From positions 19,473-83,472 of IMG/VR virus record IMGVR_UViG_3300025849_003059: a stretch of 64,000 nucleotides of DNA. One strand, 5' to 3'. Below are positions 27,252-64,000 of the stretch, one piece after another (within the stretch, counting starts at the first letter, position 1; every line of letters begins with the position of its first letter). The notes beneath the pieces were generated by a model. The model saw only the letters and a list, made by a program, of their open reading frames with translations. It did not search any database and was not told where the DNA came from. The stretch is from a virus. The position numbers and the translations under genes are program-made.

Positions 27252-28665
27252 TTAGTTTTTTACATTGATTAAAAAAGTCAACTAACTCTGGAAATGTTTC
27301 GTGGAAATTAGTTCCTCTACGTTTATCGTGTGCAGAAATAAAATTGTAAAAATCTCTACGAGTCCTCTTAAGTGTTTCTTCATCCACTTCTTCGTCAAAC
27401 CAATCAATAATTCTTTTTATTTTTCCAATTTCAATTTGAGTAAATCCTAAGTAATGGTCTTTCCAATCTTCAATTTCCCATAAAGGTTTAACCGTATGCA
27501 TTGTTTCTGCTTGAGTTACAAACTCTTCTAATCTTTCTTTAAACTCTCTTGGTAGTATTTTAACAGTTTGATGGTGTGGGTATCTTAAATACGCAGAATC
27601 TAATGTTAGGGCAGTTACCCAATATCTATCTGGTGAGTTGTGTAGTGTTTTCATTTCAAAAACCCACTCTAAAAGTTCACCATAACGTAAAATTGATAGT
27701 GCGTTGAAGGTTGACATTATAGCTATTGATAATTTTGTTGTTTTTGAAAGAAGTTCATCAACTCTTTTTTGCCAAATAGGGAAATCTAATCCATTTCGTG
27801 CATATTCTGCTTGTTCTCCAAAAGTATCTACTGATGTAAATACTGTAAGTTCTTTTATTCTTCCACTTTCTTCTAATTCAATCATTTTTGCTAAGAACTT
27901 ATCGTATATTTTATCAGGTATACCTAAGTTTGTGTTTATAGAAAGTTTTAAATTAGTGTTTGGATTATCTGTTGTAAGAATGTGTTCTACTACCCTCCAA
28001 AAATCAGGTGACATTGTTGGTTCACCACCCGTTATTCTAAAAGTATCCATATCTTTATACAAATCTGGCCACCACTCCCAAAATGCATCTACATATGGGT
28101 TTGCTTCAGAATGTTTATATGGCATTTTACCATTTTCTTGTAACCATTCTAAGTTTCCAAAGTTATCTGATGTTGGGTATGCACCATGTTGTTTTATTTC
28201 CTCTACCCACTTTGATGAATATTGAGGACCACAATAAGAACACTTAAAATTACAAGCATTTGAGAAGGCAACTTCAACATATTTTGGATTGTAGTTTTCT
28301 CTCCAACCCAATTCTTTGATTTTATCAAAATGTGGTTTAGACCAAGGTTCAAATGATTTATAGTGTCTATCAGAAAACTCAGGTCCACTATCTTCAACCT
28401 TCCAACAATAATCACACTCTGGTGGTCTTTCGTTGTTAAGCATCATTTTTCTTTGCTTCTTCTTGTGTCTTGTGTTGTGAAGTGCGGTTGGGTTTCTTTT
28501 TAATTCTCTTAATGGAATTTTATGTGGAATGGGGTGATGACACGAGTGTGTTTCACCTGTTTGAAGATGTATTGTAACTTGAGTCCATTTTGCTAAACAA
28601 AATCCACAACCAACATCATCTAGTTGTTCTCTAAAATCATATAACTGTCCTCTATGGTCTATCAT
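27232..28665 (-). CDS. Radical-SAM protein, CHHP subgroup, copy 3
   Basis: The 477-residue product is the first transcribed of the radical-SAM run. It has FCLAKWTQVTIHLQTG (Cys23, with another Cys20), SCHHPIPHKIPLRELKRN (Cys42), ALHNTRHKKKQRKMMLNN, CDYC (84-87), the radical-SAM motif CNFKCSYC (138-145), and RITGGEPTMSPDFW near 220. The ATG at 28665 forms an ATGA overlap with the stop of the GT7-LamG gene upstream, tying radical chemistry to glycosyl transfer at the level of translation. No transmembrane segment is present. What it modifies is unknown. Confidence 0.88.
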   Translation of the reverse strand: MIDHRGQLYDFREQLDDVGCGFCLAKWTQVTIHLQTGETHSCHHPIPHKIPLRELKRNPTALHNTRHKKKQRKMMLNNERPPECDYCWKVEDSGPEFSDRHYKSFEPWSKPHFDKIKELGWRENYNPKYVEVAFSNACNFKCSYCGPQYSSKWVEEIKQHGAYPTSDNFGNLEWLQENGKMPYKHSEANPYVDAFWEWWPDLYKDMDTFRITGGEPTMSPDFWRVVEHILTTDNPNTNLKLSINTNLGIPDKIYDKFLAKMIELEESGRIKELTVFTSVDTFGEQAEYARNGLDFPIWQKRVDELLSKTTKLSIAIMSTFNALSILRYGELLEWVFEMKTLHNSPDRYWVTALTLDSAYLRYPHHQTVKILPREFKERLEEFVTQAETMHTVKPLWEIEDWKDHYLGFTQIEIGKIKRIIDWFDEEVDEETLKRTRRDFYNFISAHDKRRGTNFHETFPELVDFFNQCKKLNEEFLQ

Positions 28666-30110
28666 AAACTGATTTTTATCATATTAACTAGTTTCTTTTT
28701 TGATACTTTTTTTTCTTTAAATCTTAGAGTATTTAAACCTTCAATTTTATAATTATCAAAATCTTCTCTAACTTCATTATAAAATCTAATTTGATTTTTT
28801 CTAGTATCAGAATGTATCCACTTATTTCCAATAGATGAATTTGATTTATGTTTTAAAGATTTAAATCTACTTTCTCTTCTATGTGGTTTTGGTAGATATG
28901 ATTTAAAAGATTCTATACCCTTGTATAAATATGTATTGTATAATTTTATGTTATTCTGCTGAGCTATATCAATACATTCTTCTTTTTTAGAAAATTCTGG
29001 TAATATCTGACATAATAAAAATTCTGATGATATGAAGTTATCAAAATTTCTTATTTTGGGTGTTGTTGGATTTTCGTATATTGATTTAACTTCGTTTGAA
29101 TCTAATCCAACATCATATATTTCAACTACACCAACTTTTCCAATTAAAAATTCTTTGTTTGTTTTTTTACTATTAGGTGCACCTACAAATATCTCATCAG
29201 TTGATAATTGTAAAATTTCAGTATCCATTTCTATTTTTTCAATCAATTCACCATTGACGTAAAATGAAATAAATTTATTATCTTCATATGTCATTGTTAG
29301 ATGTGTCCATGCTTCACCCATTATATCAGAAGATATTGAATATGCTTTTTTATTCAAATCATAAGTCTGACAAAAGTATCTACGAAAGGAATTGTAAAAT
29401 AATCCAATGTTGTAGCCTGGTATAGATAATATTGGGAATTCATCATAATCTTTATTTTTACTTAATTTTATTTCTTCTGGTTTTACTAAAACTGAAATAG
29501 TGAAATCATCTTCCAATAAAATAGAATCTTTTGTTGAAATTTTTATATAACTTCTATCACCATCTAATTTGAATGAATGAATTTCACTTACATTGGAATT
29601 ACCAAACACTTCTTTGTCAATATCCAATCCTGCTTGAATACATCTTATCAATAAATCATCATCTTCGAATCCCCATCCCCAATATTCATTGGAGAATCCA
29701 TTGATAGTTTTAAAATCTTCTTTGGTAAACATTGTTACTCCACCAAAGTAATCAAAGAATGTTGTTTCGTAATCGTGTTCTTGTAAATGAGTTGCTAAAT
29801 GTAAAGGTTTATCTGAATATGAGTAATCTACATCTTCTGGTAACATATCAACATCATGAAATACAAAATAATCACACCCTTTATCAACGGCATACTTATA
29901 TCCTGCATTCAGAAGTTTACCTCTATTAAAAGGTTTATCATCTGTCTGTTCAACGATGAAGATTTCATAATCAATATCCTTAATATAATCTTTCATATGA
30001 GATAAGAACCTTTTCAGTTGTTGTTCTCTATCTCTATATGGAACTATTATACCAAGTTTATGAGTTATCTTCTTCTCCTTGAGTCTCTTTGTTCTCTTGG
30101 ATTCTCTCAC
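28662..30110 (-). CDS. GT7-type glycosyltransferase with inserted LamG-like domain
   Basis: As for the 20142-21566 enzyme, the GT7 fold is split by a jelly-roll module. Counting from a GTG at 30110, VPYRDRE is at 23-29, the metal motif HDVDM at 85-89, YFGGVTMFTKEDF near 121 and an intact WGWGFEDDD at 144-152. The LamG-like part spans about 175-350 (LDGDRSYIKIS, WTHLTMTYEDNKFISFYVNGE, IGKVGVVEIYDVGL), and GT7-like KIEGLNTLRF returns near the end. The start is uncertain: GTG at 30110 has a ribosome site only two bases away and overlaps its neighbour by 53 bases. AAGGAG lies six bases before an ATA codon at residue 15, next to the conserved fold. Confidence 0.82.
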   Translation of the reverse strand: MRESKRTKRLKEKKITHKLGIIVPYRDREQQLKRFLSHMKDYIKDIDYEIFIVEQTDDKPFNRGKLLNAGYKYAVDKGCDYFVFHDVDMLPEDVDYSYSDKPLHLATHLQEHDYETTFFDYFGGVTMFTKEDFKTINGFSNEYWGWGFEDDDLLIRCIQAGLDIDKEVFGNSNVSEIHSFKLDGDRSYIKISTKDSILLEDDFTISVLVKPEEIKLSKNKDYDEFPILSIPGYNIGLFYNSFRRYFCQTYDLNKKAYSISSDIMGEAWTHLTMTYEDNKFISFYVNGELIEKIEMDTEILQLSTDEIFVGAPNSKKTNKEFLIGKVGVVEIYDVGLDSNEVKSIYENPTTPKIRNFDNFISSEFLLCQILPEFSKKEECIDIAQQNNIKLYNTYLYKGIESFKSYLPKPHRRESRFKSLKHKSNSSIGNKWIHSDTRKNQIRFYNEVREDFDNYKIEGLNTLRFKEKKVSKKKLVNMIKISL

Positions 30111-30333
30111 TTCCTCTTTCGGGTCTGTTTATACTTCCTTTTGTTCTTGTTTTGAAAATTTGAAAAAATTCATTCAAATACCACTCTAATCTTTCAGACC
30201 ATTCTACTAGTCCAACATCCTCGTTGTAATCATTTCGTTCTTCGAGGGCATCTGCGATTCTTCCAAAAGCCTTAGCCATCTTTTCATAGGCCTCAACTTT
30301 TCTTTCTTCAAAGTTATTATCTTTATCTGCCAT
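30058..30333 (-). CDS. Small helical phage protein, 91 residues
   Basis: The product is acidic and helical at the N-terminus (ERKVEAYEKMAKAFGRIADALEE), then carries an aromatic segment WSERLEWYLNEFFQIF (about residues 45-60). The end is hydrophilic and disordered. It is the kind of small helical protein often found between phage accessory genes. The ATG at 30333 lies four bases after the stop of the upstream GT7 gene, and its tail overlaps the next GT7 gene by 53 bases or fewer depending on that start. It could be a partner or chaperone of the flanking transferases; nothing in the sequence proves it. Confidence 0.55.
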   Translation of the reverse strand: MADKDNNFEERKVEAYEKMAKAFGRIADALEERNDYNEDVGLVEWSERLEWYLNEFFQIFKTRTKGSINRPERGSERIQENKETQGEEDNS

Positions 30334-30337
30334 AATA

Positions 30338-31795
30338 TTAAGTTATTATTCTTACTAATTTATATTCACTTCTATCTTGGATATCCATTATTTTATATTT
30401 TAATGTAGATAATCCAATTTTTTTATAATCAAGTTCATCTGTTAACACTTCGTTAAAGAAAATATCAGCATTCTCTTCAATATCAGGGTCATATTCATAA
30501 TATTTTTCAATAATATTTTCATCATCATCGTGTACTAATGACTTGTACTTACCATCCAATCTAACTGGTATGGAAATTTCATCTGTTAGGTATATTTCTT
30601 CATTTGATAAATTAAAATTACTACCTTCAATATTTAAATGATTGTAATTCTTACCTGAATCTAATACCACCCTATTTTTATATAACTTATCAAAGTTAAA
30701 AAAGTTACTCAATACAATACCATATTTATTTTTTAATAAATCAAGGTTAGATTTTCCATTATAATATAGGTCAGATACGATATCATCATTTATTTTACTA
30801 GAAATACAAAAGATATCTGCTAGTTTAATTTCAGAATTTGTATCTGATATTTTAATTGAATGATTTTTATAATCGTATAATTTAAAATCTTTTGGTAAGT
30901 TACCACTAACTTTAATATTATTAAGATATAATGATATTTTATCATCATCAAAAGAAAAAACTGCATGATTCCATGTGTTTTTATAATAAGTTTGACTTAT
31001 CTCTTGGTGTTTTTCTTTTGTATCCCATATTTGACCTATTAAGTATTTACCATCTGATAAAAATAGACCAGAATCACATCCTTCAAACGCAAATAAGTTT
31101 TTAGGATAATCACCTCCATTATCTTTAAACCATAATGATATTGTAAACTGTTTTTCTATATCGTTTTGGGTTAATTTATTTATAACACCATAGAATCTAG
31201 TATCTTTTTCGATTTCAACTAAATTTAGTGTTTGTTTTTTTGGATTATTGCTCAAATCAACATCTTCAATTCTATATGGTAGGATATCATCATTATTATA
31301 TTTTGAATATGTTTTGTTTAAATCATAATATACTTCAAGATATGCATCACTTTTTTCTAATCTATATAATAAATCTAAATCACTAAAACCATAACCATAG
31401 TATTCTGGTGAGTAACCATTTGAATTTTCAAAATCTTCTCTATTAATTAACAAAACACCACCCATATATTGAGGATAGGGTAGTTCACCATTATGAGCCT
31501 CAACATCATTTGCTAAATGAGTTGGTTCATCAACATAAGAATAATCACATTCATCTGTCATTGGTAACATATCAATATCGTGGAAACAAAAATAGTTATA
31601 TTCTGCATCTATTTCCTTAACAACAGCATTACATAGTTTTCCATAATTAAATGGTCTATCATCTGCTTGTTCAGCTATAAAAATATCATAATCAATTCCT
31701 TTACCATCTAAGAATTCATGCATATGAGGAACAAATGTATTTAAATGTTCTTCTCTATCTCTATATGGAACGATTATTGCTAATTTATCACTCAT
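30338..31795 (-). CDS. GT7-like protein with LamG-like insertion and degenerate acidic motif
   Basis: The 485-residue product shares the GT7-LamG architecture: VPYRDREEHL (10-19), metal motif HDIDM (72-76) and YMGGVLLINREDFENSNGYS. At the position of WGWGxEDDD it reads YGYGFSDLD (133-141), so two of the acidic residues, including the glutamate, are replaced. The LamG-like region spans about 180-345 (FTISLWFKDNGG, WNHAVFSFDDDKISLYLNN), and IGLSTLKYKIMDI closes the GT7 fold. It may have changed donor or acceptor, or serve as a non-catalytic binding partner for the two intact paralogues. It overlaps the upstream gene by four bases (ATGA). Confidence 0.75.
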   Translation of the reverse strand: MSDKLAIIVPYRDREEHLNTFVPHMHEFLDGKGIDYDIFIAEQADDRPFNYGKLCNAVVKEIDAEYNYFCFHDIDMLPMTDECDYSYVDEPTHLANDVEAHNGELPYPQYMGGVLLINREDFENSNGYSPEYYGYGFSDLDLLYRLEKSDAYLEVYYDLNKTYSKYNNDDILPYRIEDVDLSNNPKKQTLNLVEIEKDTRFYGVINKLTQNDIEKQFTISLWFKDNGGDYPKNLFAFEGCDSGLFLSDGKYLIGQIWDTKEKHQEISQTYYKNTWNHAVFSFDDDKISLYLNNIKVSGNLPKDFKLYDYKNHSIKISDTNSEIKLADIFCISSKINDDIVSDLYYNGKSNLDLLKNKYGIVLSNFFNFDKLYKNRVVLDSGKNYNHLNIEGSNFNLSNEEIYLTDEISIPVRLDGKYKSLVHDDDENIIEKYYEYDPDIEENADIFFNEVLTDELDYKKIGLSTLKYKIMDIQDRSEYKLVRIIT

Positions 31796-38085: not shown

Positions 38086-41000
38086 TTATTTATCTTTTAA
38101 TTGTTTAATTTGTTTTTCTAACTTATTAACTTTTTTAGAAAGTTCTTTTACTGCCTCAATAAGTAATGGAGTTAATTTTTCATATTTTACACCCCTATAT
38201 CCATGAGATTTGTTCATTTGAACAATTTCAGGTAAGATATATTCTATCTCTTGTGCAATTACACCAATATCATGTCCTTCAAATTTATGAACATCAGAGA
38301 ATCCTTCCTTCCAATCAAAAGAAACTCCACTTATTTCATTTAATTTCTCAAGAGCATCAGGTATAAGTTTTACGTTTTGTTTTAATCGTGAATCTGAAGT
38401 TGAATATGCTGATATATTACCCGATGCATCTATATGACCATCAACAAAAAAATGACCAGTTACAGATAATGCAGGAGTTGATGCATTTGAATCTATTTCT
38501 GCAATTATCTTTTTGTTTGCAGATGATACAACTTGGAATCCACCTCTACATATTTCTGTAAATTGGTTATCTGCACCAGCAGCAACTGTTACACTTGGAG
38601 TTGTTAGTTTTGGAGTGTACCATGTTAAAGTTAAACTATCACTTGGTTCATTATCATCTACGCCATATATATCAACACTAGATGCAACATTACCAATACC
38701 GGTCCTTATCTCATAATATGTATTATTTTCTAAAAGTACATTAAACCTTGCTGTCTTAGAAGTACTAATAGATAACTCATGAGCTGAAATGGAATTTGTA
38801 GATATATTAAATGTTTTAGTAGAAACTAATGTATTTGGATTGGAAGTACTTCCTTTATATAAATAAACATATAGAGTTGCACTTACTTCATGATAACCCA
38901 ATGTAGCAAGAGCATCATCAAATTCCGAGTTTATATGTTTAGAACTTGGACCACCACCTGTTATTGTAGCTGCAATTGTTGCAGATATTCCATCTAAAGT
39001 AGAATTATTAATATGCATTTGTACATTATTATCTTTAGTGAATATGGTAGAATCTGAAACTGATAATCCAAATGTTTGAGAATTTAAAACATAATCATAA
39101 TCAGTATTAGTTGTAGTTGTAGTGATTGCTCCACTAAAAGTGGGTGGTGTTATTACAGTAGTTGGTGTTAATGTTGTTGTATTATTTATTACTACTGAAG
39201 CAGAATCATCATTTCTAAATTCAATAAAAGGTGTTAAACCAGTCTCTAATAAAAACGTATTATTTTCAGTTGATAATTCTGTACCATTAAAATCAAATCC
39301 TGCTATTTTACCAGCAGAAGCAGTTATTTCACCTGCTATTTTTAATTGACTTCCATTCCATGCCATTGCTCCATCTTCACCACCAAGATAAAAGTTTCCA
39401 CTATTATCCATGTAAGATTTCCATTCCCCATCTCCACTTGAACCAGATGGTTTATAGTAATACCCTAAGTTAGTATTTGATAAATGTAAACCACTTTTTA
39501 CAGGAACATCTATACTTGCAAGAGGGAAGAGTGCATCTGGTCCAAATGACATAGCGTATTCCCAACCTGATGCTGATACAATACCACCGGGAAATTGTTC
39601 CGAACCACTTATAATTCCATCAGGCAATTGTTCTGAACCACTTATAATTCCATCAGGCAATTGTTCCGAACCACTTATAATTCCAGCGGGTAGGTTGTTA
39701 CCTAAATCACTACCATCACCCAATGTAATATTTCCACTTATTGATAATGCTTCTCCATCCCAAACAAGTTTATTACCTAAAGACATTCTACCAACAGAAC
39801 CACTATCATCTACATAAAATGGGGTACCTGAACTATTAAAACTGCCAGAACCAATATATATTCTATTAGGAAAACTACCACTTTCAGCTGCTAATCTAAT
39901 ACCATTTTGCCCAACACCAAATACATTTGAGATATATCCATTTGTACCACCAATATTTGGTGAGTAAATAAATCCTTCATCTATAAATGTATTTCCATCA
40001 CCATCTTCTAAAGCAGTTGTACCATCAATCACACCTTGTAAATCATTATTTACTTGTGCTGAAGATGCAGATGCGAAATCTGCGGTACTTTGTGCTAATG
40101 AAGCAGAATCTAATGCTCCACTTGTGTAAAGAGAAGAAGTAATTAGAGTTTCTGTAATAAGGTCAGGTACATTAGAAAATTGTATCGAACCTCTAATAGT
40201 TAATGAATTCCCATCCCAAAGTAATTCATCTCCGAACAATCCACTTTCTATTGAGAATGAACCAGTACCGGTATTTCCATTAATTCCTAAGAAAATTCCA
40301 CTACCAACATTATATCCTTGAGTACCAGTATCGGCCGATTGGTCTATTGAAATCCAAGGATAATTTGTTCCACCTGCTATTGTAATATTTGCCGCAGAAG
40401 TTGAACCACTATTATTTGTACCAATGTTTATTGTGTTTTGTACATATGATTCTGAGAATATTGCTAATTCTGCTGCTACAAAACGAGAACCACTTCCTAA
40501 CTCTTCCCAATATGTAGCATTTGGAGGTGTTTGAGCACCAGAATCTGTACCAGGTCCACTACCTGTTATAGCTAAGTAAAATATATCATTGTATAAAACT
40601 GCATCTGCTCTTGATAAAGCATCACTTTCATTGAATGAATAATCTCTACTACCGGTCCAAAGACCAGTAAACACAAGACCAGGTCCATTAGAACCACTAA
40701 GGCCGGGTTGACCTTGTTCACCTTCTCTAACAATGTTGAAATGTGCTTCTCTACCAAAGAAATATGTAGTTCCCAATTCATCAGTATAATCTACATTAAT
40801 TTGTAATGATGATGATTCTGTTAACATCGTACCAGGTACACCACCATAATTATTTGTTGTTGGTGCAACTTCATTTGGTGTAATACCGGAACCAGTTACA
40901 CCAGAAATTCTGTAAGTGTTATTTCCACCATTATTATCATATGTTATTTCATCACCCTCTACATAAAGTGTTGTAGAACCACTTGTATAAACATAAGATG

Positions 41001-44000
41001 ATGATGGAATTAGACCACTATAAAAAGCAGGTAATATACCTATTTCGGGTCTTAGAACAAGAACAACTCCACCTAAGAAAGATATTGGGGTTATTGTTGT
41101 TGAGTTATCTACTTGAACTCCAAATGAATCTGATGCTGAAAAGGCATATGTTAAAGAACCTGAATTAATATCGAGTGATGAACCACTTAAGAAATATGTT
41201 TGAACACCTGATGTTGAATCATCAGATAAAAGAGTTAGTGGTGGTGCACTTCCAACTACTGAAGCAGAATTTGCTGTAATTGTTTCGGTATTTGTAGCTA
41301 AATTTTTTCTTTTAACTGTAATAGTAGATACTTGTGTTGATGGGTTTACATTTCCATCACTTTGTTTAAACGTGATTACACTTCTATCATTATTAACAAT
41401 TAAATCTGCAGGTGTAATACCATCTTCTAATCTAAAAATAGTTTCAAACTCTTGTACATCATCAACTGAAGCAGTGTAGACTACAGAACCAACATCATAA
41501 GTAGTATCACTACCACTAAAGTTTGCAACTGTAAGAAGTGCATTAGTTTCTGTTATATTTGTTAAACCACCAGGATAATCTCCACTATATGTTGATGGGT
41601 CTATGTAATTTCCATTTTTATCAAAAGCAGAAGATTCGAATGTTATAGAACCAGTTAAAGCATTTGTTTTGGAAAAATTAAATCTAGTTTGTTGAAAGTT
41701 AGGATTTGCTATTGAACCACTATAAAATCTAAAAGCAGTTCTATCAGTTTCAAATGTAAGTAATTTAACTACTTCATCACTAACCTTATTACCACCACTA
41801 AATTCTTTACTTGCCTTTAATTCAACTGGAATATAATTATTATTTACATCGTATAACTCAAAACGATAATCAAATGTTTCTACTGGTAATGTTCTATCTT
41901 GTTCATCAAATACATCAAAAACTTTTGGTGAAAATGATGCATCTTGTGAAGGTTTTAAATCTACACTAGCTATTTGCCAACCATCCCCTCTAAACGAAAA
42001 TCCTAATTTACCCGAACCAGAATATGGCATGGTAAACAAATGTTGTATTTGTTGTCTTGAATTAAATGCTGAAGTTGCGGTATATGATACTAAACTTTCA
42101 TAAAAAGGATTATCAATACCACCACTTGGGTAAGAACCTGTTATATAAGCATTAATTGTTTTAGGTACAATAGTATCTGGTTCTTTTAAAGAACGAGAAA
42201 CAAACACTGCTGGTTCTGTAAACGTAGTTGTATCTGTTCCATTTACTGAAGATGCAGTATAGATACTATCTAATCTTTCTACTAATACATTTTCCACAAT
42301 ACCATCTACTGTATCAAATACATAAGGAATGTTAAATGTAGTATCTGGTATGGTTACATCGGTTGTAATATCAAAATCATCTGTAATATAAGTTCCATCG
42401 GTTGCTGTAGTAACAAAAGGATAATTAGATAAATTGTATAATGAATTTCCTGCAATTAGTGGAAGTTGTGATGTATAATAATCAGTTGAAGTAACTGAAC
42501 CAGTTATTGTTGTACTACCAGATAATGGAAATATTTCTCTTGCTTTTAGTGAACTAAATGAATTCGTACCAATATCAGATATTGCAGTTATTTCATGTAA
42601 ATTTGCATTTAAAGGTTCGGATGTTCTATTGGTTCTGTAATCAATATAAATAAAGTGAGAATTACTACCAGATTGTAAATCAAAAATAGCTTGAGAACCA
42701 GTTGATAAAAACCAAGTTGGAGTACTTGTAAAATCACCACTATCAATTGAATCTAAAATAATATTTGTACTGCCAGAATATGATTGTAATACAGATTGAG
42801 ATGTTGCAGAATTATTATAAAAGAACATTGCATCTGTTTCTACGTTTCTTAATGCAATTGCTGCTCTTAATTCTTGTGAAGCAGATTGATAATATTCTAT
42901 CTGAAATTCAACTGAACCTGTATTTGTTGGTATTGAGGATGACCCACTATCGGTTAATAAAACAATATTAAACTGACCGATTGAGGATGAGATTGGATTT
43001 GTTGCAGTAATTAATGAATTATAATTTGCAAGAGATGTTTTATAAGTATCACTATGTAATGTATCATCTACATGAACACTACCAGTTAAAGAACCAGTTG
43101 GAAACCAACCAGTAAATACAACATCTTGGTCGTATATATAATCAGTATTATTAATATCACTTGAAGATGATATAGATGATGCTACATATATTTGGTCTGA
43201 TTGTTCTACATAAACATTTTCAATTACATCATTATCATTTCTAAAAATGTATGGAATCTGTAATGGTTTTGTAAAATTATCATCAGATGATGATGGAGAT
43301 GTGAATTCTGTTGTTAAAAAGTTTCTATCACTAAATTCAGTCGATGAGTATGGATACCCACTACTTCCATAAATATAATCCCCACCCCTTGGTGGTACTC
43401 TTGGTACAAATAATTCAGTAGAACCTGTTGAAATCCAATTTGAACCACTTAAATCAAATAAATCGTATAAATCATATGAACGTTGTGCTGGTGTTAGTTC
43501 TGTGAAATCCAACTCACCAGTAAATACCATTATTCCTTGTTCAAAATCTAATTCAACAATATATCCAGTCGTTGTATCACTTCCAATTGTAAGAACTGCT
43601 TGACCATTTACTAAACTTACTACTCCACTTAATGTACCATCAGTTGAATTATGTGAAAACGTTATATCACCAGTATCAAAGTTCATTGAGTTTATTTCGT
43701 AGGTAGTTCCATACAAAATATCACCATCAAGAGAATCTAATCTTTTTACATTTATCAGTTCTGCGTTAAGTGGTTCTATATTTCTTAAAGTTCTATAATC
43801 AATATGAACGTAATGATAACCGCTATCATTATAATCTATAATTGTTTGTGAACCAGTATCCCATGTTGATATAACTGAAGTATCATTATAATCATTTGTA
43901 TCAATATTTTCCAAAGAATACTCAGTAGATGTTCTAAATGATTCTAGTTCATCTAATTCAGTTGAACTGTGTTTATAATAAAATTTAGCATCTGTTCCTA

Positions 44001-45807
44001 TGTTTTCTAATCCAAACAATGCAATTCTTGTTGAGCCAGAATCATATGTTTCAACAATAGTTCTAACATCGGTTGGTGAACCACCAGTTGGTAAAGTAAA
44101 CGAACCACTATCTAACCAAACTACAAGATTAAACTCACCACAGAAAGACCCTGAACGTGCAACTATGTTTGTTTTATTAGAAGAATCTGTTTGTACTCGT
44201 GAATTCGTTCCCCAATCCCCACTTGTTGTATCAAATGTTAAAGTTGTATCGTGTGAATGTGTATATGCAAATCCACTTGGTATTGCTGTATAAACTGAAC
44301 CTGTTGAGTTTTGTGGAGTATCAAAAAATGATAATCGTGTATCATCATAAACTAATGGTTTGGTTAAATTTACACTAGATGAATTTGGTGTTTCTATTCC
44401 ACTATAAGAACTTTCAGAAACATAAGTTGGTTCTACTTCAGGTAATTGACTTGAATCAAATTGATAAAAGTAAGTTCTTGCATAAGATTCAGAAACAACT
44501 GTTGTTTCTCCTATGATTATATCTTCAACCGAACCACTAACTAAAGTTTTAAAATTTAATTCGTAATCAACATTTTCATATAAATCAAAATTAGTATCAA
44601 CTAATAAATCAATTGATTCTGTTTGTTGACTACTTGTTGGTACGTTTATTTTTATAGATTCATATAATAAATCATCATCAAATGATATATCAGTAGAAGA
44701 ACCACTAATTTGTAAAGATGAAGTTGTCCAATATCTCTCAACATTTCCCGCACTTAATTTACCAAACCCACCATCTAATTCAGAACCAGGAACAAGAGGG
44801 TCTCTTAAAAGATTTCCTGCTACAATCTTTATTTCATCTTGAAATTTAAAATCACCAACATCAGAACGTGATTTTTTATATATTTTCATTTTATCAACAT
44901 TACCAGTAAACGTATCTAAGTTTTTAAGTTTGATTTTACCGAAAGATGCTGTAACCGCAGAGTTAACTGTTGTTCTCGCAGCAAAATCAGTAAATGTTGT
45001 TTCAAAACTTACTGGTGTTGAATTATTTATAATATTGTTTTCACTATCTACAAATGGTTTATCTACTAGTAAAGTGTTGCTGTTTATAACTTCTTTTATT
45101 GTGGCTTCATAATTCAATGATGGGATTTTTATAATATTTTCATCCATCGCTGATTTGAAATTATTACCACTTTGTTTTTCTAATCTATATAAAGTTCCTG
45201 CTCTCCATGTATCTAAATTAGTTCCAACTGGTGGTGTTTCTGCTAATCCAATCAAAGAACCAGATTGTATTATTTCGGGTGCAGTTTGTTCTACAATAAC
45301 AGATTCAACCTCTTCTATATCAATTGACGGTTTTTTATAAAATATTACAGGAGTTTTATTGCTTTCATTTTTATTGATGAAAAAATTCTTTTCCCACTTA
45401 ACATTGTAAGCACCAACCCATTCTTCGGGTACTGGTTTTTTTAATCCATCTACATCAAAATAATCTTTTAATTCACCAAGTATGGTGATTTTAGCTGGAC
45501 CAACTGGTGTTGTTTGATAAACGTGAGAGGAAAGAACAACTGAGTTCCCTTCATAATAATCAGGTACACCACGACCTGGTTCTACATAAATAGTACCACC
45601 ATCTGCATCTACAATTTCTATTTTAAGTTCGGTGGATTCTCTTAAGCATTCAGAACCTTCTAATAGAAATAAATTTTTACCTGCAGTAAATATATCTGCA
45701 AACTTACTTACTCTAAAATATTCTGAATTTAGTTCTTTATCGGTTATATAAGTGTTATAACCACTTAAATTCTCAAATTTGTTACCAACCTTTACTATAC
45801 ACGCCAT
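38086..45807 (-). CDS. Giant tail fibre/spike with C-terminal S74 intramolecular chaperone
   Basis: The 2573-residue product ends with the S74 (endosialidase-type) chaperone, about residues 2465-2573: SDSRLKQNVKLIPDALEKL, FDWKEGF, DIGVIAQEIEYILPEIV and a C-terminal coiled coil. The catalytic Ser-Lys dyad of self-cleaving trimer chaperones is represented by SDSRLKQN. Before it lie long beta-rich, Ser/Gly/Thr-rich repeats and a collagen-like snippet (GEQGQPGLSGSNGP near 1700). There is also a pair of about 330-residue duplicated modules (each with YVHIDYRT or FIYIDYRT and then EPLNA), and a tandem 11-residue repeat around 2040-2070. It probably trimerises and recognises the host. It starts after a box at 45828-45840. 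Confidence 0.88.
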   Translation of the reverse strand: MACIVKVGNKFENLSGYNTYITDKELNSEYFRVSKFADIFTAGKNLFLLEGSECLRESTELKIEIVDADGGTIYVEPGRGVPDYYEGNSVVLSSHVYQTTPVGPAKITILGELKDYFDVDGLKKPVPEEWVGAYNVKWEKNFFINKNESNKTPVIFYKKPSIDIEEVESVIVEQTAPEIIQSGSLIGLAETPPVGTNLDTWRAGTLYRLEKQSGNNFKSAMDENIIKIPSLNYEATIKEVINSNTLLVDKPFVDSENNIINNSTPVSFETTFTDFAARTTVNSAVTASFGKIKLKNLDTFTGNVDKMKIYKKSRSDVGDFKFQDEIKIVAGNLLRDPLVPGSELDGGFGKLSAGNVERYWTTSSLQISGSSTDISFDDDLLYESIKINVPTSSQQTESIDLLVDTNFDLYENVDYELNFKTLVSGSVEDIIIGETTVVSESYARTYFYQFDSSQLPEVEPTYVSESSYSGIETPNSSSVNLTKPLVYDDTRLSFFDTPQNSTGSVYTAIPSGFAYTHSHDTTLTFDTTSGDWGTNSRVQTDSSNKTNIVARSGSFCGEFNLVVWLDSGSFTLPTGGSPTDVRTIVETYDSGSTRIALFGLENIGTDAKFYYKHSSTELDELESFRTSTEYSLENIDTNDYNDTSVISTWDTGSQTIIDYNDSGYHYVHIDYRTLRNIEPLNAELINVKRLDSLDGDILYGTTYEINSMNFDTGDITFSHNSTDGTLSGVVSLVNGQAVLTIGSDTTTGYIVELDFEQGIMVFTGELDFTELTPAQRSYDLYDLFDLSGSNWISTGSTELFVPRVPPRGGDYIYGSSGYPYSSTEFSDRNFLTTEFTSPSSSDDNFTKPLQIPYIFRNDNDVIENVYVEQSDQIYVASSISSSSDINNTDYIYDQDVVFTGWFPTGSLTGSVHVDDTLHSDTYKTSLANYNSLITATNPISSSIGQFNIVLLTDSGSSSIPTNTGSVEFQIEYYQSASQELRAAIALRNVETDAMFFYNNSATSQSVLQSYSGSTNIILDSIDSGDFTSTPTWFLSTGSQAIFDLQSGSNSHFIYIDYRTNRTSEPLNANLHEITAISDIGTNSFSSLKAREIFPLSGSTTITGSVTSTDYYTSQLPLIAGNSLYNLSNYPFVTTATDGTYITDDFDITTDVTIPDTTFNIPYVFDTVDGIVENVLVERLDSIYTASSVNGTDTTTFTEPAVFVSRSLKEPDTIVPKTINAYITGSYPSGGIDNPFYESLVSYTATSAFNSRQQIQHLFTMPYSGSGKLGFSFRGDGWQIASVDLKPSQDASFSPKVFDVFDEQDRTLPVETFDYRFELYDVNNNYIPVELKASKEFSGGNKVSDEVVKLLTFETDRTAFRFYSGSIANPNFQQTRFNFSKTNALTGSITFESSAFDKNGNYIDPSTYSGDYPGGLTNITETNALLTVANFSGSDTTYDVGSVVYTASVDDVQEFETIFRLEDGITPADLIVNNDRSVITFKQSDGNVNPSTQVSTITVKRKNLATNTETITANSASVVGSAPPLTLLSDDSTSGVQTYFLSGSSLDINSGSLTYAFSASDSFGVQVDNSTTITPISFLGGVVLVLRPEIGILPAFYSGLIPSSSYVYTSGSTTLYVEGDEITYDNNGGNNTYRISGVTGSGITPNEVAPTTNNYGGVPGTMLTESSSLQINVDYTDELGTTYFFGREAHFNIVREGEQGQPGLSGSNGPGLVFTGLWTGSRDYSFNESDALSRADAVLYNDIFYLAITGSGPGTDSGAQTPPNATYWEELGSGSRFVAAELAIFSESYVQNTINIGTNNSGSTSAANITIAGGTNYPWISIDQSADTGTQGYNVGSGIFLGINGNTGTGSFSIESGLFGDELLWDGNSLTIRGSIQFSNVPDLITETLITSSLYTSGALDSASLAQSTADFASASSAQVNNDLQGVIDGTTALEDGDGNTFIDEGFIYSPNIGGTNGYISNVFGVGQNGIRLAAESGSFPNRIYIGSGSFNSSGTPFYVDDSGSVGRMSLGNKLVWDGEALSISGNITLGDGSDLGNNLPAGIISGSEQLPDGIISGSEQLPDGIISGSEQFPGGIVSASGWEYAMSFGPDALFPLASIDVPVKSGLHLSNTNLGYYYKPSGSSGDGEWKSYMDNSGNFYLGGEDGAMAWNGSQLKIAGEITASAGKIAGFDFNGTELSTENNTFLLETGLTPFIEFRNDDSASVVINNTTTLTPTTVITPPTFSGAITTTTTNTDYDYVLNSQTFGLSVSDSTIFTKDNNVQMHINNSTLDGISATIAATITGGGPSSKHINSEFDDALATLGYHEVSATLYVYLYKGSTSNPNTLVSTKTFNISTNSISAHELSISTSKTARFNVLLENNTYYEIRTGIGNVASSVDIYGVDDNEPSDSLTLTWYTPKLTTPSVTVAAGADNQFTEICRGGFQVVSSANKKIIAEIDSNASTPALSVTGHFFVDGHIDASGNISAYSTSDSRLKQNVKLIPDALEKLNEISGVSFDWKEGFSDVHKFEGHDIGVIAQEIEYILPEIVQMNKSHGYRGVKYEKLTPLLIEAVKELSKKVNKLEKQIKQLKDK
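39593..39691 (-). repeat. Three tandem 33-base repeats inside the S74 fibre gene
   Basis: Three adjacent 33-base units differ at only a few positions (a C/T change in unit 2, four changes at the end of unit 3). On the coding strand they encode about three copies of an eleven-residue block, PDGIISGSEQL. The period is a multiple of three, so expansion or loss keeps the frame. This points to slippage-driven length variation in the fibre stalk. Confidence 0.85.
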
Positions 45808-63169: not shown

Positions 63170-64000
63170 CTACCTTGCAGCCATTCTAACACCTTCTCCT
63201 TTGTAATTGTGGGTTAAAATGTTATTTGCAAAGTATGTATGTTTACCATTTAACGTAATCAAATACACAGTATCTATTCTATCCCATGATATTGTATGAA
63301 TCACAACTTCATTTTTATCTCTATCCATGTAAACATCATCAGGTTGTAATTGTAATGTTGTTTGAATCATCCATAAATCATTTCTTCTTATTAGATGCTT
63401 GTGGTCCTCACTAGCTTCCAATAAACCATCATTGATAGAATAAACTTCAGCATCAGTAATTTCCATAGTATTAGTTACTTGATATTCATCAAAATCATAT
63501 TGTTCAATATTAGAACCTTTCCAATTATCTTCAACTTCAAACCATTCAGAAAGTGTTTTAATATCTAATCCCATTAATGAATCTCCTATTTTAACATCTT
63601 TAATTGATTTAAAACTACCATCTGACATTTCTGTTTGGGTATTACCAACTAAGCATCCTCCGCCTCCTCCTCCGCCGCCTCCGCGTGGTGATGGTGGTGA
63701 TGGTGCTCTATACCCACATTTAGTTGCGTTTAACACCGATTCAGTTTTCCATCCACCCTTTCCATCTGCGTATCTAATCGCAAGTTCAAACTCAGGTGAA
63801 TTTGGAATACACTTTTCTGTTCTACCAGAACCATATGCTGGATTTGCAGGTGGTGTTGGTTTTGGTCTTGGTACTGGTGTTCTTGGTGGTGGGGCTGATG
63901 CACCCTCACCCTCCTGTCGTATGGTTACAGATGTTGTTGGATTTCCTGGTAATGTAGAACTGAAAGAAACAGTACCACTACGTGCAGGTCCATCGTTTTT
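63170..64000 (-). CDS. BACON-like virion protein ending in intein-like Hint domain, partial at the window edge
   Basis: The frame is open across the right edge, so the N-terminus is missing. Visible parts, in order: a BACON-type end (RSGTVSFSSTLPG, TIRQEGEG), a Pro-rich linker, about 30 ordinary residues, nine glycines, then a Hint domain and eleven more residues. The Hint domain (63206-63655, about 150 residues) has CLVGNTQTEMSDG with Cys1 and VKIGD, a block B-like SEDHKHLI, LQLQPDDVYM, and the end HTYFANNILTHN with His-Asn. The next residue is Tyr, where splicing inteins have Cys, Ser or Thr. It may cleave rather than splice. A GTG at 63736 is only an internal start. Confidence 0.82.
   Translation of the reverse strand, partial: KNDGPARSGTVSFSSTLPGNPTTSVTIRQEGEGASAPPPRTPVPRPKPTPPANPAYGSGRTEKCIPNSPEFELAIRYADGKGGWKTESVLNATKCGYRAPSPPSPRGGGGGGGGGCLVGNTQTEMSDGSFKSIKDVKIGDSLMGLDIKTLSEWFEVEDNWKGSNIEQYDFDEYQVTNTMEITDAEVYSINDGLLEASEDHKHLIRRNDLWMIQTTLQLQPDDVYMDRDKNEVVIHTISWDRIDTVYLITLNGKHTYFANNILTHNYKGEGVRMAAR

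What the first reader, a model, noticed from the sequence alone, without database searches (positions are those of the whole stretch)
63170..64000. Intein-like Hint domain at the C-terminus of a BACON-like virion protein, after a nine-glycine hinge
Seen: Cys-1 at the end of Gly9, block B-like SEDH, terminal His-Asn, followed by Tyr and only ten more residues. Known: splicing needs Cys, Ser or Thr at +1, while bacterial intein-like (BIL) domains lacking it cleave or join otherwise. Inference: self-processing or thioester-mediated attachment of the adhesin during virion assembly.
Basis: partly seen in the sequence, partly recalled or inferred. Interest (0 to 1): 0.75.

Follow-up and report, generated by a model that had tools for sequence, protein, structure and literature searches.

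The report
Self-processing cap on phage adhesin
A marine T4-like phage makes a tail/baseplate adhesin that ends in an intact, intein-like self-cutting domain; the same cap sits on fibre proteins of many unrelated phages, which suggests (not yet tested in the lab) that phages use it to trim or covalently attach the ends of their adhesins.

Summary
The ORF at 63170-64000 (minus strand) is the 3' end of a gene cut by the contig end. A near-identical contig (L002) shows the whole 753-aa protein. It ends in Gly9, then a 150-residue Hint domain (Cys1, block-B SEDH, C-terminal His-Asn), then YKGEGVRMAAR. A profile built without this family gives 122.6 bits (best of 1000 shuffles: 14.1). AlphaFold predicts a confident HINT fold; the nearest solved structures are bacterial-intein-like (BIL) domains. 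By sequence it is a type-A BIL: His-Asn present, no Cys/Ser/Thr at +1.

The same arrangement (fibrous phage protein, usually Gly-rich, C-terminal Hint, short unconserved tail) occurs in many unrelated phages, including named jumbo phages annotated 'tail protein, contains intein domain'. In two orthologues the Hint is followed by a Peptidase_S74 chaperone domain, and an unrelated fibre also carries both. Other orthologues lack the Hint.

Best reading: a removable C-terminal processing module. It most likely cleaves at Gly-Cys1; thioester ligation to an amine is the more novel alternative. Catalysis itself is untested. Two corrections: nine glycines are not a conserved hinge, and BACON is borderline here but clear in orthologues.

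The parts
63170..64000 (-). 3' part (last 276 codons plus stop) of the adhesin gene; 5' part lies beyond the contig end. Full homologue: L002:4243-6504, 753 aa
63911..64000 (-). C-terminal half of a BACON domain (full-protein residues 478-507 of the 447-507 match)
   Evidence: Pfam BACON 21.1 bits in L002 (cut-off 25), 25.8-32.0 bits in orthologues L248, L250, L253, L254, L257
63707..63841 (-). small two-Cys segment conserved in some orthologues, between Pro-rich linkers; function unknown
   Evidence: alignment A1
63656..63682 (-). nine consecutive Gly codons directly before Cys1
   Evidence: length not conserved in orthologues
63206..63655 (-). Hint (type-A BIL-like) domain, 150 residues from Cys1 to His-Asn
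   Evidence: leave-out profile 122.6 bits; AF2 HINT fold; Foldseek best match 6Y75 BIL2, E 8.9e-10
63653..63655 (-). Cys1, predicted nucleophile of the N-S acyl shift
   Evidence: invariant in A3
63401..63412 (-). block B SEDH (catalytic His at position B:10)
   Evidence: invariant His in A3
63206..63211 (-). block G His-Asn, predicted C-terminal cleavage by Asn cyclisation
   Evidence: 29 of 29 Hints found through Gly5-Cys alone carry HN
63173..63205 (-). 11-residue tail YKGEGVRMAAR after Asn; +1 is Tyr
   Evidence: replaced by a Peptidase_S74 domain in L253/L254
57907..63084 (-). next gene downstream in the same module, 1725-aa protein of unknown function

Best explanation
The C-terminal 161 residues are a self-processing cap on a baseplate/tail adhesin. 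Shown: an intact type-A BIL-like Hint with all core catalytic residues, no +1 nucleophile, a short unconserved tail, and recurrence at the C-terminal ends of fibrous virion proteins in many phages. Inferred: during or after folding, Cys1 attacks the preceding Gly carbonyl to make a thioester, Asn150 cyclises and sheds the tail, and the thioester is resolved mainly by hydrolysis. The Hint is thereby released and the adhesin keeps a free glycine-rich end. By position and company it would play the role that the self-cleaving S74 chaperone plays on other tail fibres.
For: Cys1, block-B His and His-Asn are the only invariant residues of 31 divergent viral Hints. This is not just selection of hits: 29/29 Hints found through Gly-Cys alone end in HN, 7/7 found through the C-terminal motif alone start with Cys, and all 8 distinct orthologues found through the N-terminal domain keep all of them. 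Hint dN/dS is 0.16-0.39. AF2 HINT fold; nearest solved structures are BIL2 of Tetrahymena BUBL1 by fold and C. thermocellum BIL by profile. In an intein-motif scan 83 of 102 +1 residues are Cys; Hints with a Gly-rich N-flank instead lack Cys/Ser/Thr at +1 (3 of 4 vs 6 of 65, Fisher p 0.006). Type-A BILs mostly give cleavage products; one with Tyr at +1 did not splice (PMC4031507). Fibre context: collagen-like or short-repeat proteins upstream. S74 follows the Hint in L254 (24.2 bits, cut-off 22), L253 (18.5) and the unrelated L174 (66.2). Module present or absent between close orthologues.
Against: No activity or virion data. Block-F Asp (F:4) is not present, and F:13 His is conserved only within the close family. 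If hydrolytic release of the Hint is the whole point, strict conservation of Asn when it only sheds 2-35 residues is unexplained. S74 follows in only three cases. Orthologues without the Hint exist, so it is not essential to this adhesin.
Confidence: 0.52

Rival explanations
1. Thioester-mediated ligation: the glycine-end thioester made by the Hint is attacked by an amine (a Lys of another virion subunit, of the same trimer, or of the host surface), leaving the adhesin joined by an isopeptide bond, as a ubiquitin-like domain is dispensed by BIL2 in Tetrahymena.
For: Best fold match is BIL2 of BUBL1, reported to form an isopeptide bond between the upstream RGG-ended domain and Lys (PMC8616854; RGG motif PMC9200820). 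Gly is at -1 in 38 of 43 C-terminal phage Hints versus 4 of 62 canonical inteins, though many were found through a Gly pattern.
Against: Fold similarity at about 20% identity does not carry over the reaction outcome; no partner or conserved acceptor Lys identified; -1 Gly also suits simple cleavage; five phage Hints lack Gly at -1.
Confidence: 0.22
2. Type-A BIL splicing: after Asn cyclisation the free amine of the tail attacks the thioester, so the adhesin ends as ...Gly9-YKGEGVRMAAR (or, in relatives, joined to S74).
For: Mechanism shown for other type-A BILs (PMC4031507); would explain why Asn is kept; in L253/L254/L174 the C-side is a useful domain.
Against: Tails are short and unconserved in sequence and length; a Tyr+1 BIL did not splice.
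Confidence: 0.1
3. The Hint is a non-processing structural or receptor-binding domain, or a recently inactivated remnant passed around with adhesin ends.
For: Presence/absence among orthologues; no activity data; F:4 Asp missing.
Against: Purifying selection and invariance focused on catalytic positions; a purely structural role would not need Cys1 and His-Asn.
Confidence: 0.13
4. Ordinary mini-intein with a short C-extein that splices in the standard way.
For: HINT fold and intein motifs.
Against: +1 is Tyr; +1 is non-Cys/Ser/Thr in most of the class; no intact host protein is restored; orthologues without the Hint have unrelated C-termini.
Confidence: 0.03

Closest known systems
Type-A bacterial intein-like (BIL) domains (Amitai 2003; Dassa 2004; 2LWY C. 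thermocellum BIL)
   Same: HINT fold, Cys1, block-B His, terminal His-Asn, no +1 nucleophile, located in variable surface-type proteins
   Different: Here the domain is at the extreme C-terminus of phage fibre/adhesin proteins, usually after a Gly-rich run, with only a short tail; activity not measured
BIL2 of Tetrahymena thermophila BUBL1 (6Y75/6TMM)
   Same: Closest solved fold; glycine residues directly before Cys1; no +1 nucleophile
   Different: BIL2 lies between ubiquitin-like domains and dispenses the upstream one to Lys; about 20% identity; no ubiquitin-like domain in the phage protein
Tail proteins 'contains intein domain' of jumbo phages Erwinia Y3, Alexandra, Dickeya AD1, Yersinia fHe-Yen9-02, phage NCTB
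   Same: Collagen-like or other tail protein, C-terminal Hint of about 140-153 aa ending in HN, tail of 7-12 residues without Cys at +1
   Different: 20-30% identity, different virion protein; only an annotation, no described mechanism found
Peptidase_S74 intramolecular chaperone of endosialidase
   Same: C-terminal, self-processing, on phage fibres; adjoins the Hint in L253, L254 and L174
   Different: Unrelated fold and chemistry (Ser/Lys autocleavage)
Hedgehog Hog-Hint
   Same: HINT fold (1at0), C-terminal domain that makes a thioester and leaves
   Different: Hog lacks His-Asn and transfers cholesterol; no sterol-recognition region here

Membership tests
Hint (hedgehog/intein) superfamily | HINT fold | tested here: met
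   AF2 core pLDDT above 90; Foldseek to 6Y75, 1MI8, 2LWY, 1AT0, probability 1.00
Hint (hedgehog/intein) superfamily | Cys/Ser at position 1 and His at B:10 | tested here: met
   invariant columns in 31 sequences
Type-A BIL | C-terminal His-Asn (block G) | tested here: met
   63206-63211; 29/29 in a set not selected for it
Type-A BIL | no Cys/Ser/Thr at +1 | tested here: met
   Tyr here; orthologues Y, F, I, N, R, A
Type-A BIL | autocleavage, occasional splicing | not testable with these tools
   needs expression
Type-A BIL | found in non-conserved, variable proteins | tested here: met
   region between N-domain and Hint is hypervariable among orthologues
Class 1 intein | +1 nucleophile and restoration of a conserved host protein | tested here: not met
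   Tyr at +1; Hint-free orthologues have different C-termini
Peptidase_S74 tail-fibre processing (works like) | S74 domain in this protein | tested here: not met
   absent in the window protein; present in L254 above cut-off and L253 below it
BACON-domain adhesin | BACON above Pfam cut-off | tested here: inconclusive
   21.1 bits versus 25 in L002; 25.8-32.0 bits in five orthologues

The most novel reading that the evidence does not exclude
Phages use C-terminal BIL domains as ATP-free, ubiquitin-like conjugation devices: the Gly-Cys1 thioester transfers the adhesin's glycine end to Lys residues of another virion protein or of the host surface, covalently fixing the adhesin.
Probability: 0.2. 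Interest if true: 0.88.

Novelty: new variant of a known kind. Interest (0 to 1): 0.62.

Why it matters
BIL domains have been known for two decades with no clear natural role for most of them. A large class sitting as caps on fibrous phage proteins, and in three proteins joined to the S74 fibre chaperone, gives a testable role: processing or covalent attachment of adhesin ends. If ligation is the outcome, phage tails would contain isopeptide cross-links made without an enzyme cascade, and the domains could be natural glycine-end ligation tools. Named culturable phages (Erwinia Y3, Yersinia fHe-Yen9-02, Dickeya AD1) carry the same module, so the question can be tested directly.

Tried and rejected
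The scan for His-Asn followed by an S74 motif was too loose and found no further Hint-S74 fusion. AF2 of the N-terminal 330 residues failed (pLDDT 38), so the virion role of that domain was not assigned by fold. GTDB genomes hold no close relative. Lys/Arg enrichment of the tails was tested as a sign of an acceptor: 16.6% versus 14.1% background, at most weak, rejected as evidence. Standard splicing intein rejected for lack of a +1 nucleophile. Ten paper searches found no description of C-terminal Hint domains on phage fibres in the open-access library; subscription papers were not covered.

Full report
What is there. The window is bases 19473-83472 of an 83,472-base virus record. The finding lies at its very end, on the minus strand, and the gene runs off the contig. 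A near-identical contig (L002, IMG/VR 3300009507_003477) contains the whole gene, 753 codons. A second relative, L003, has 704 codons and 78% identity over the Hint. The protein starts with a conserved domain of about 330 residues, followed by a GC-x-D-x-x-ATNYN-type Cys repeat, Pro-rich linkers, a BACON domain, a small two-Cys segment, Gly9, the Hint and an 11-residue tail. Upstream, in the same direction, are a baseplate-wedge protein (PHROG 219, E 2.8e-22), a 354-aa protein and a coiled-coil-like 428-aa protein; downstream is a 1725-aa protein. The phage is a T4-like myovirus by its terminase, portal and baseplate genes. Its large terminase is 54% identical to Flavobacterium phage immuto and 57% to Microcystis phage Mel-JY01.

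Pfam recognises the domain only below its cut-offs. A profile made from 23 other viral Hints, leaving out this protein and its orthologues, gives 122.6 bits, against 14.1 for the best of 1000 shuffles. AlphaFold2 on a 31-sequence alignment gives mean pLDDT 86.9, above 90 through the core. Foldseek puts BIL2 of Tetrahymena BUBL1 first (6Y75, E 8.9e-10), followed by DnaB inteins, gp41-1 and the C. thermocellum BIL domain 2LWY. A profile search of PDB sequences ranks 2LWY first (3.2e-15) and BIL2 next.

It recurs widely. A DNA scan of IMG/VR for five Gly codons plus Cys-[Phe/Leu]-[Ala/Val] brought in many unrelated phages whose fibrous or repeat-rich proteins end in the same way: Gly-run, Hint, His-Asn, then 4-35 residues. 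Upstream sequences are collagen-like repeats, NPPVYD repeats, ARQPFTY repeats and similar. Named phages hold it too. In Erwinia Y3 and Alexandra and their relatives, Dickeya AD1, Yersinia fHe-Yen9-02 and phage NCTB, a tail protein (collagen-like in those read in full) ends in a Hint plus a short tail, and the depositors of Y3 and NCTB wrote 'putative phage tail protein, contains intein domain'.

Conservation points to catalysis. In 31 sequences only four residues are invariant: Cys1, the block-B His, and His-Asn. Because the scans themselves select for one end or the other, this was cross-checked. Of 29 distinct Hints found through Gly5-Cys alone, all end in His-Asn; of 7 C-terminal mini-Hints found through the C-terminal motif alone, all start with Cys. 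All 8 distinct complete Hint-bearing orthologues found through the N-terminal domain keep all of them. dN/dS over the Hint is 0.16-0.39. By contrast +1 is free to vary (A, V, F, I, K, Y, G, N, R and others). In the C-terminal-motif scan, 83 of 102 Hints have Cys at +1, as inteins should; those with a Gly-rich N-flank lack Cys/Ser/Thr at +1 in 3 of 4 cases versus 6 of 65 for the rest (Fisher p 0.006, small numbers).

Orthologues and S74. Searching with the N-terminal domain found 14 loci. Nine carry the Hint. L250, 82% identical in the N-domain, and L257/L258 do not, and end differently; L246 and L255 are cut short. The stretch between N-domain and Hint is hypervariable. In L253 and L254 the tail after His-Asn is not short but a Peptidase_S74 domain (SFSDRRLKKNI...): L254 scores 24.2 bits against a cut-off of 22, L253 18.5. 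In L248 and L003 the short tails GFNTSSLY resemble the start of that stretch, which may be a remnant (reading by eye only). An unrelated fibre, L174, has a Hint with Lys at +1 and a strong S74 (66.2 bits) at its end. S74 is a self-cleaving fibre chaperone used on tail fibres and low-complexity proteins (PMC7824862). The close Hint family was not found in GTDB genomes.

How it most likely works. The features match type-A BIL domains: C-terminal His-Asn and no +1 nucleophile; cleavage products dominate and splicing is possible; a BIL with Tyr at +1 did not splice until it was changed to Cys (PMC4031507). I therefore favour self-release: thioester at Gly-Cys1, Asn cyclisation, hydrolysis, leaving an adhesin with a glycine-rich end. 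The neighbouring S74 in relatives suggests that the Hint is one of several interchangeable processing ends of phage fibres. The main rival is ligation. The nearest fold, BIL2, forms an isopeptide bond between the upstream ubiquitin-like domain, which ends in RGG, and a Lys (PMC8616854 and PMC9200820), and here too the residues before Cys1 are Arg-Gly-Gly... That parallel is suggestive only. None of these reactions has been observed for a phage Hint in anything I could read.

Verdict. Membership: HINT fold met; type-A BIL sequence features met; activity untested; class 1 intein not met. The novelty lies in the setting and its generality rather than in the domain.

Noticed in passing
L105:1007-4738 (-), L106, L072, L044, L048, L047, L123: A mirror-image arrangement: tail-tip protein J (FNIII-A_GpJ, Phage-tail_3) carries a Hint near its N-terminus, between two poly-Gly stretches, with only a short N-terminal flank and Ala/Gly/Thr at +1.
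   Followed up: partly
L142:4202-6976, L157, L171, L176, L206: Two or more Hint domains in tandem in one protein, each starting Cys and ending His-Asn, joined by a few residues.
   Followed up: partly
L174:1-1497: Unrelated phage fibre with Hint (Lys at +1) in the middle and a strong Peptidase_S74 domain at the C-terminus.
   Followed up: partly
L126:2744-3205: Phage NCTB gene BN7874_135: a free-standing Hint-like 154-aa ORF directly after a Hint-bearing tail protein gene, perhaps a duplicate or separated cap.
   Followed up: no
window 7351-31795: Large cluster of sugar and surface-polymer genes in a phage: cytidyltransferase, nucleotide-sugar epimerases, radical SAM proteins, and family-7 glycosyltransferases fused to LamG-like domains at 28662-31795.
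   Followed up: no
window 38086-45807: 2573-aa ORF, the largest of the window, not examined.
   Followed up: no
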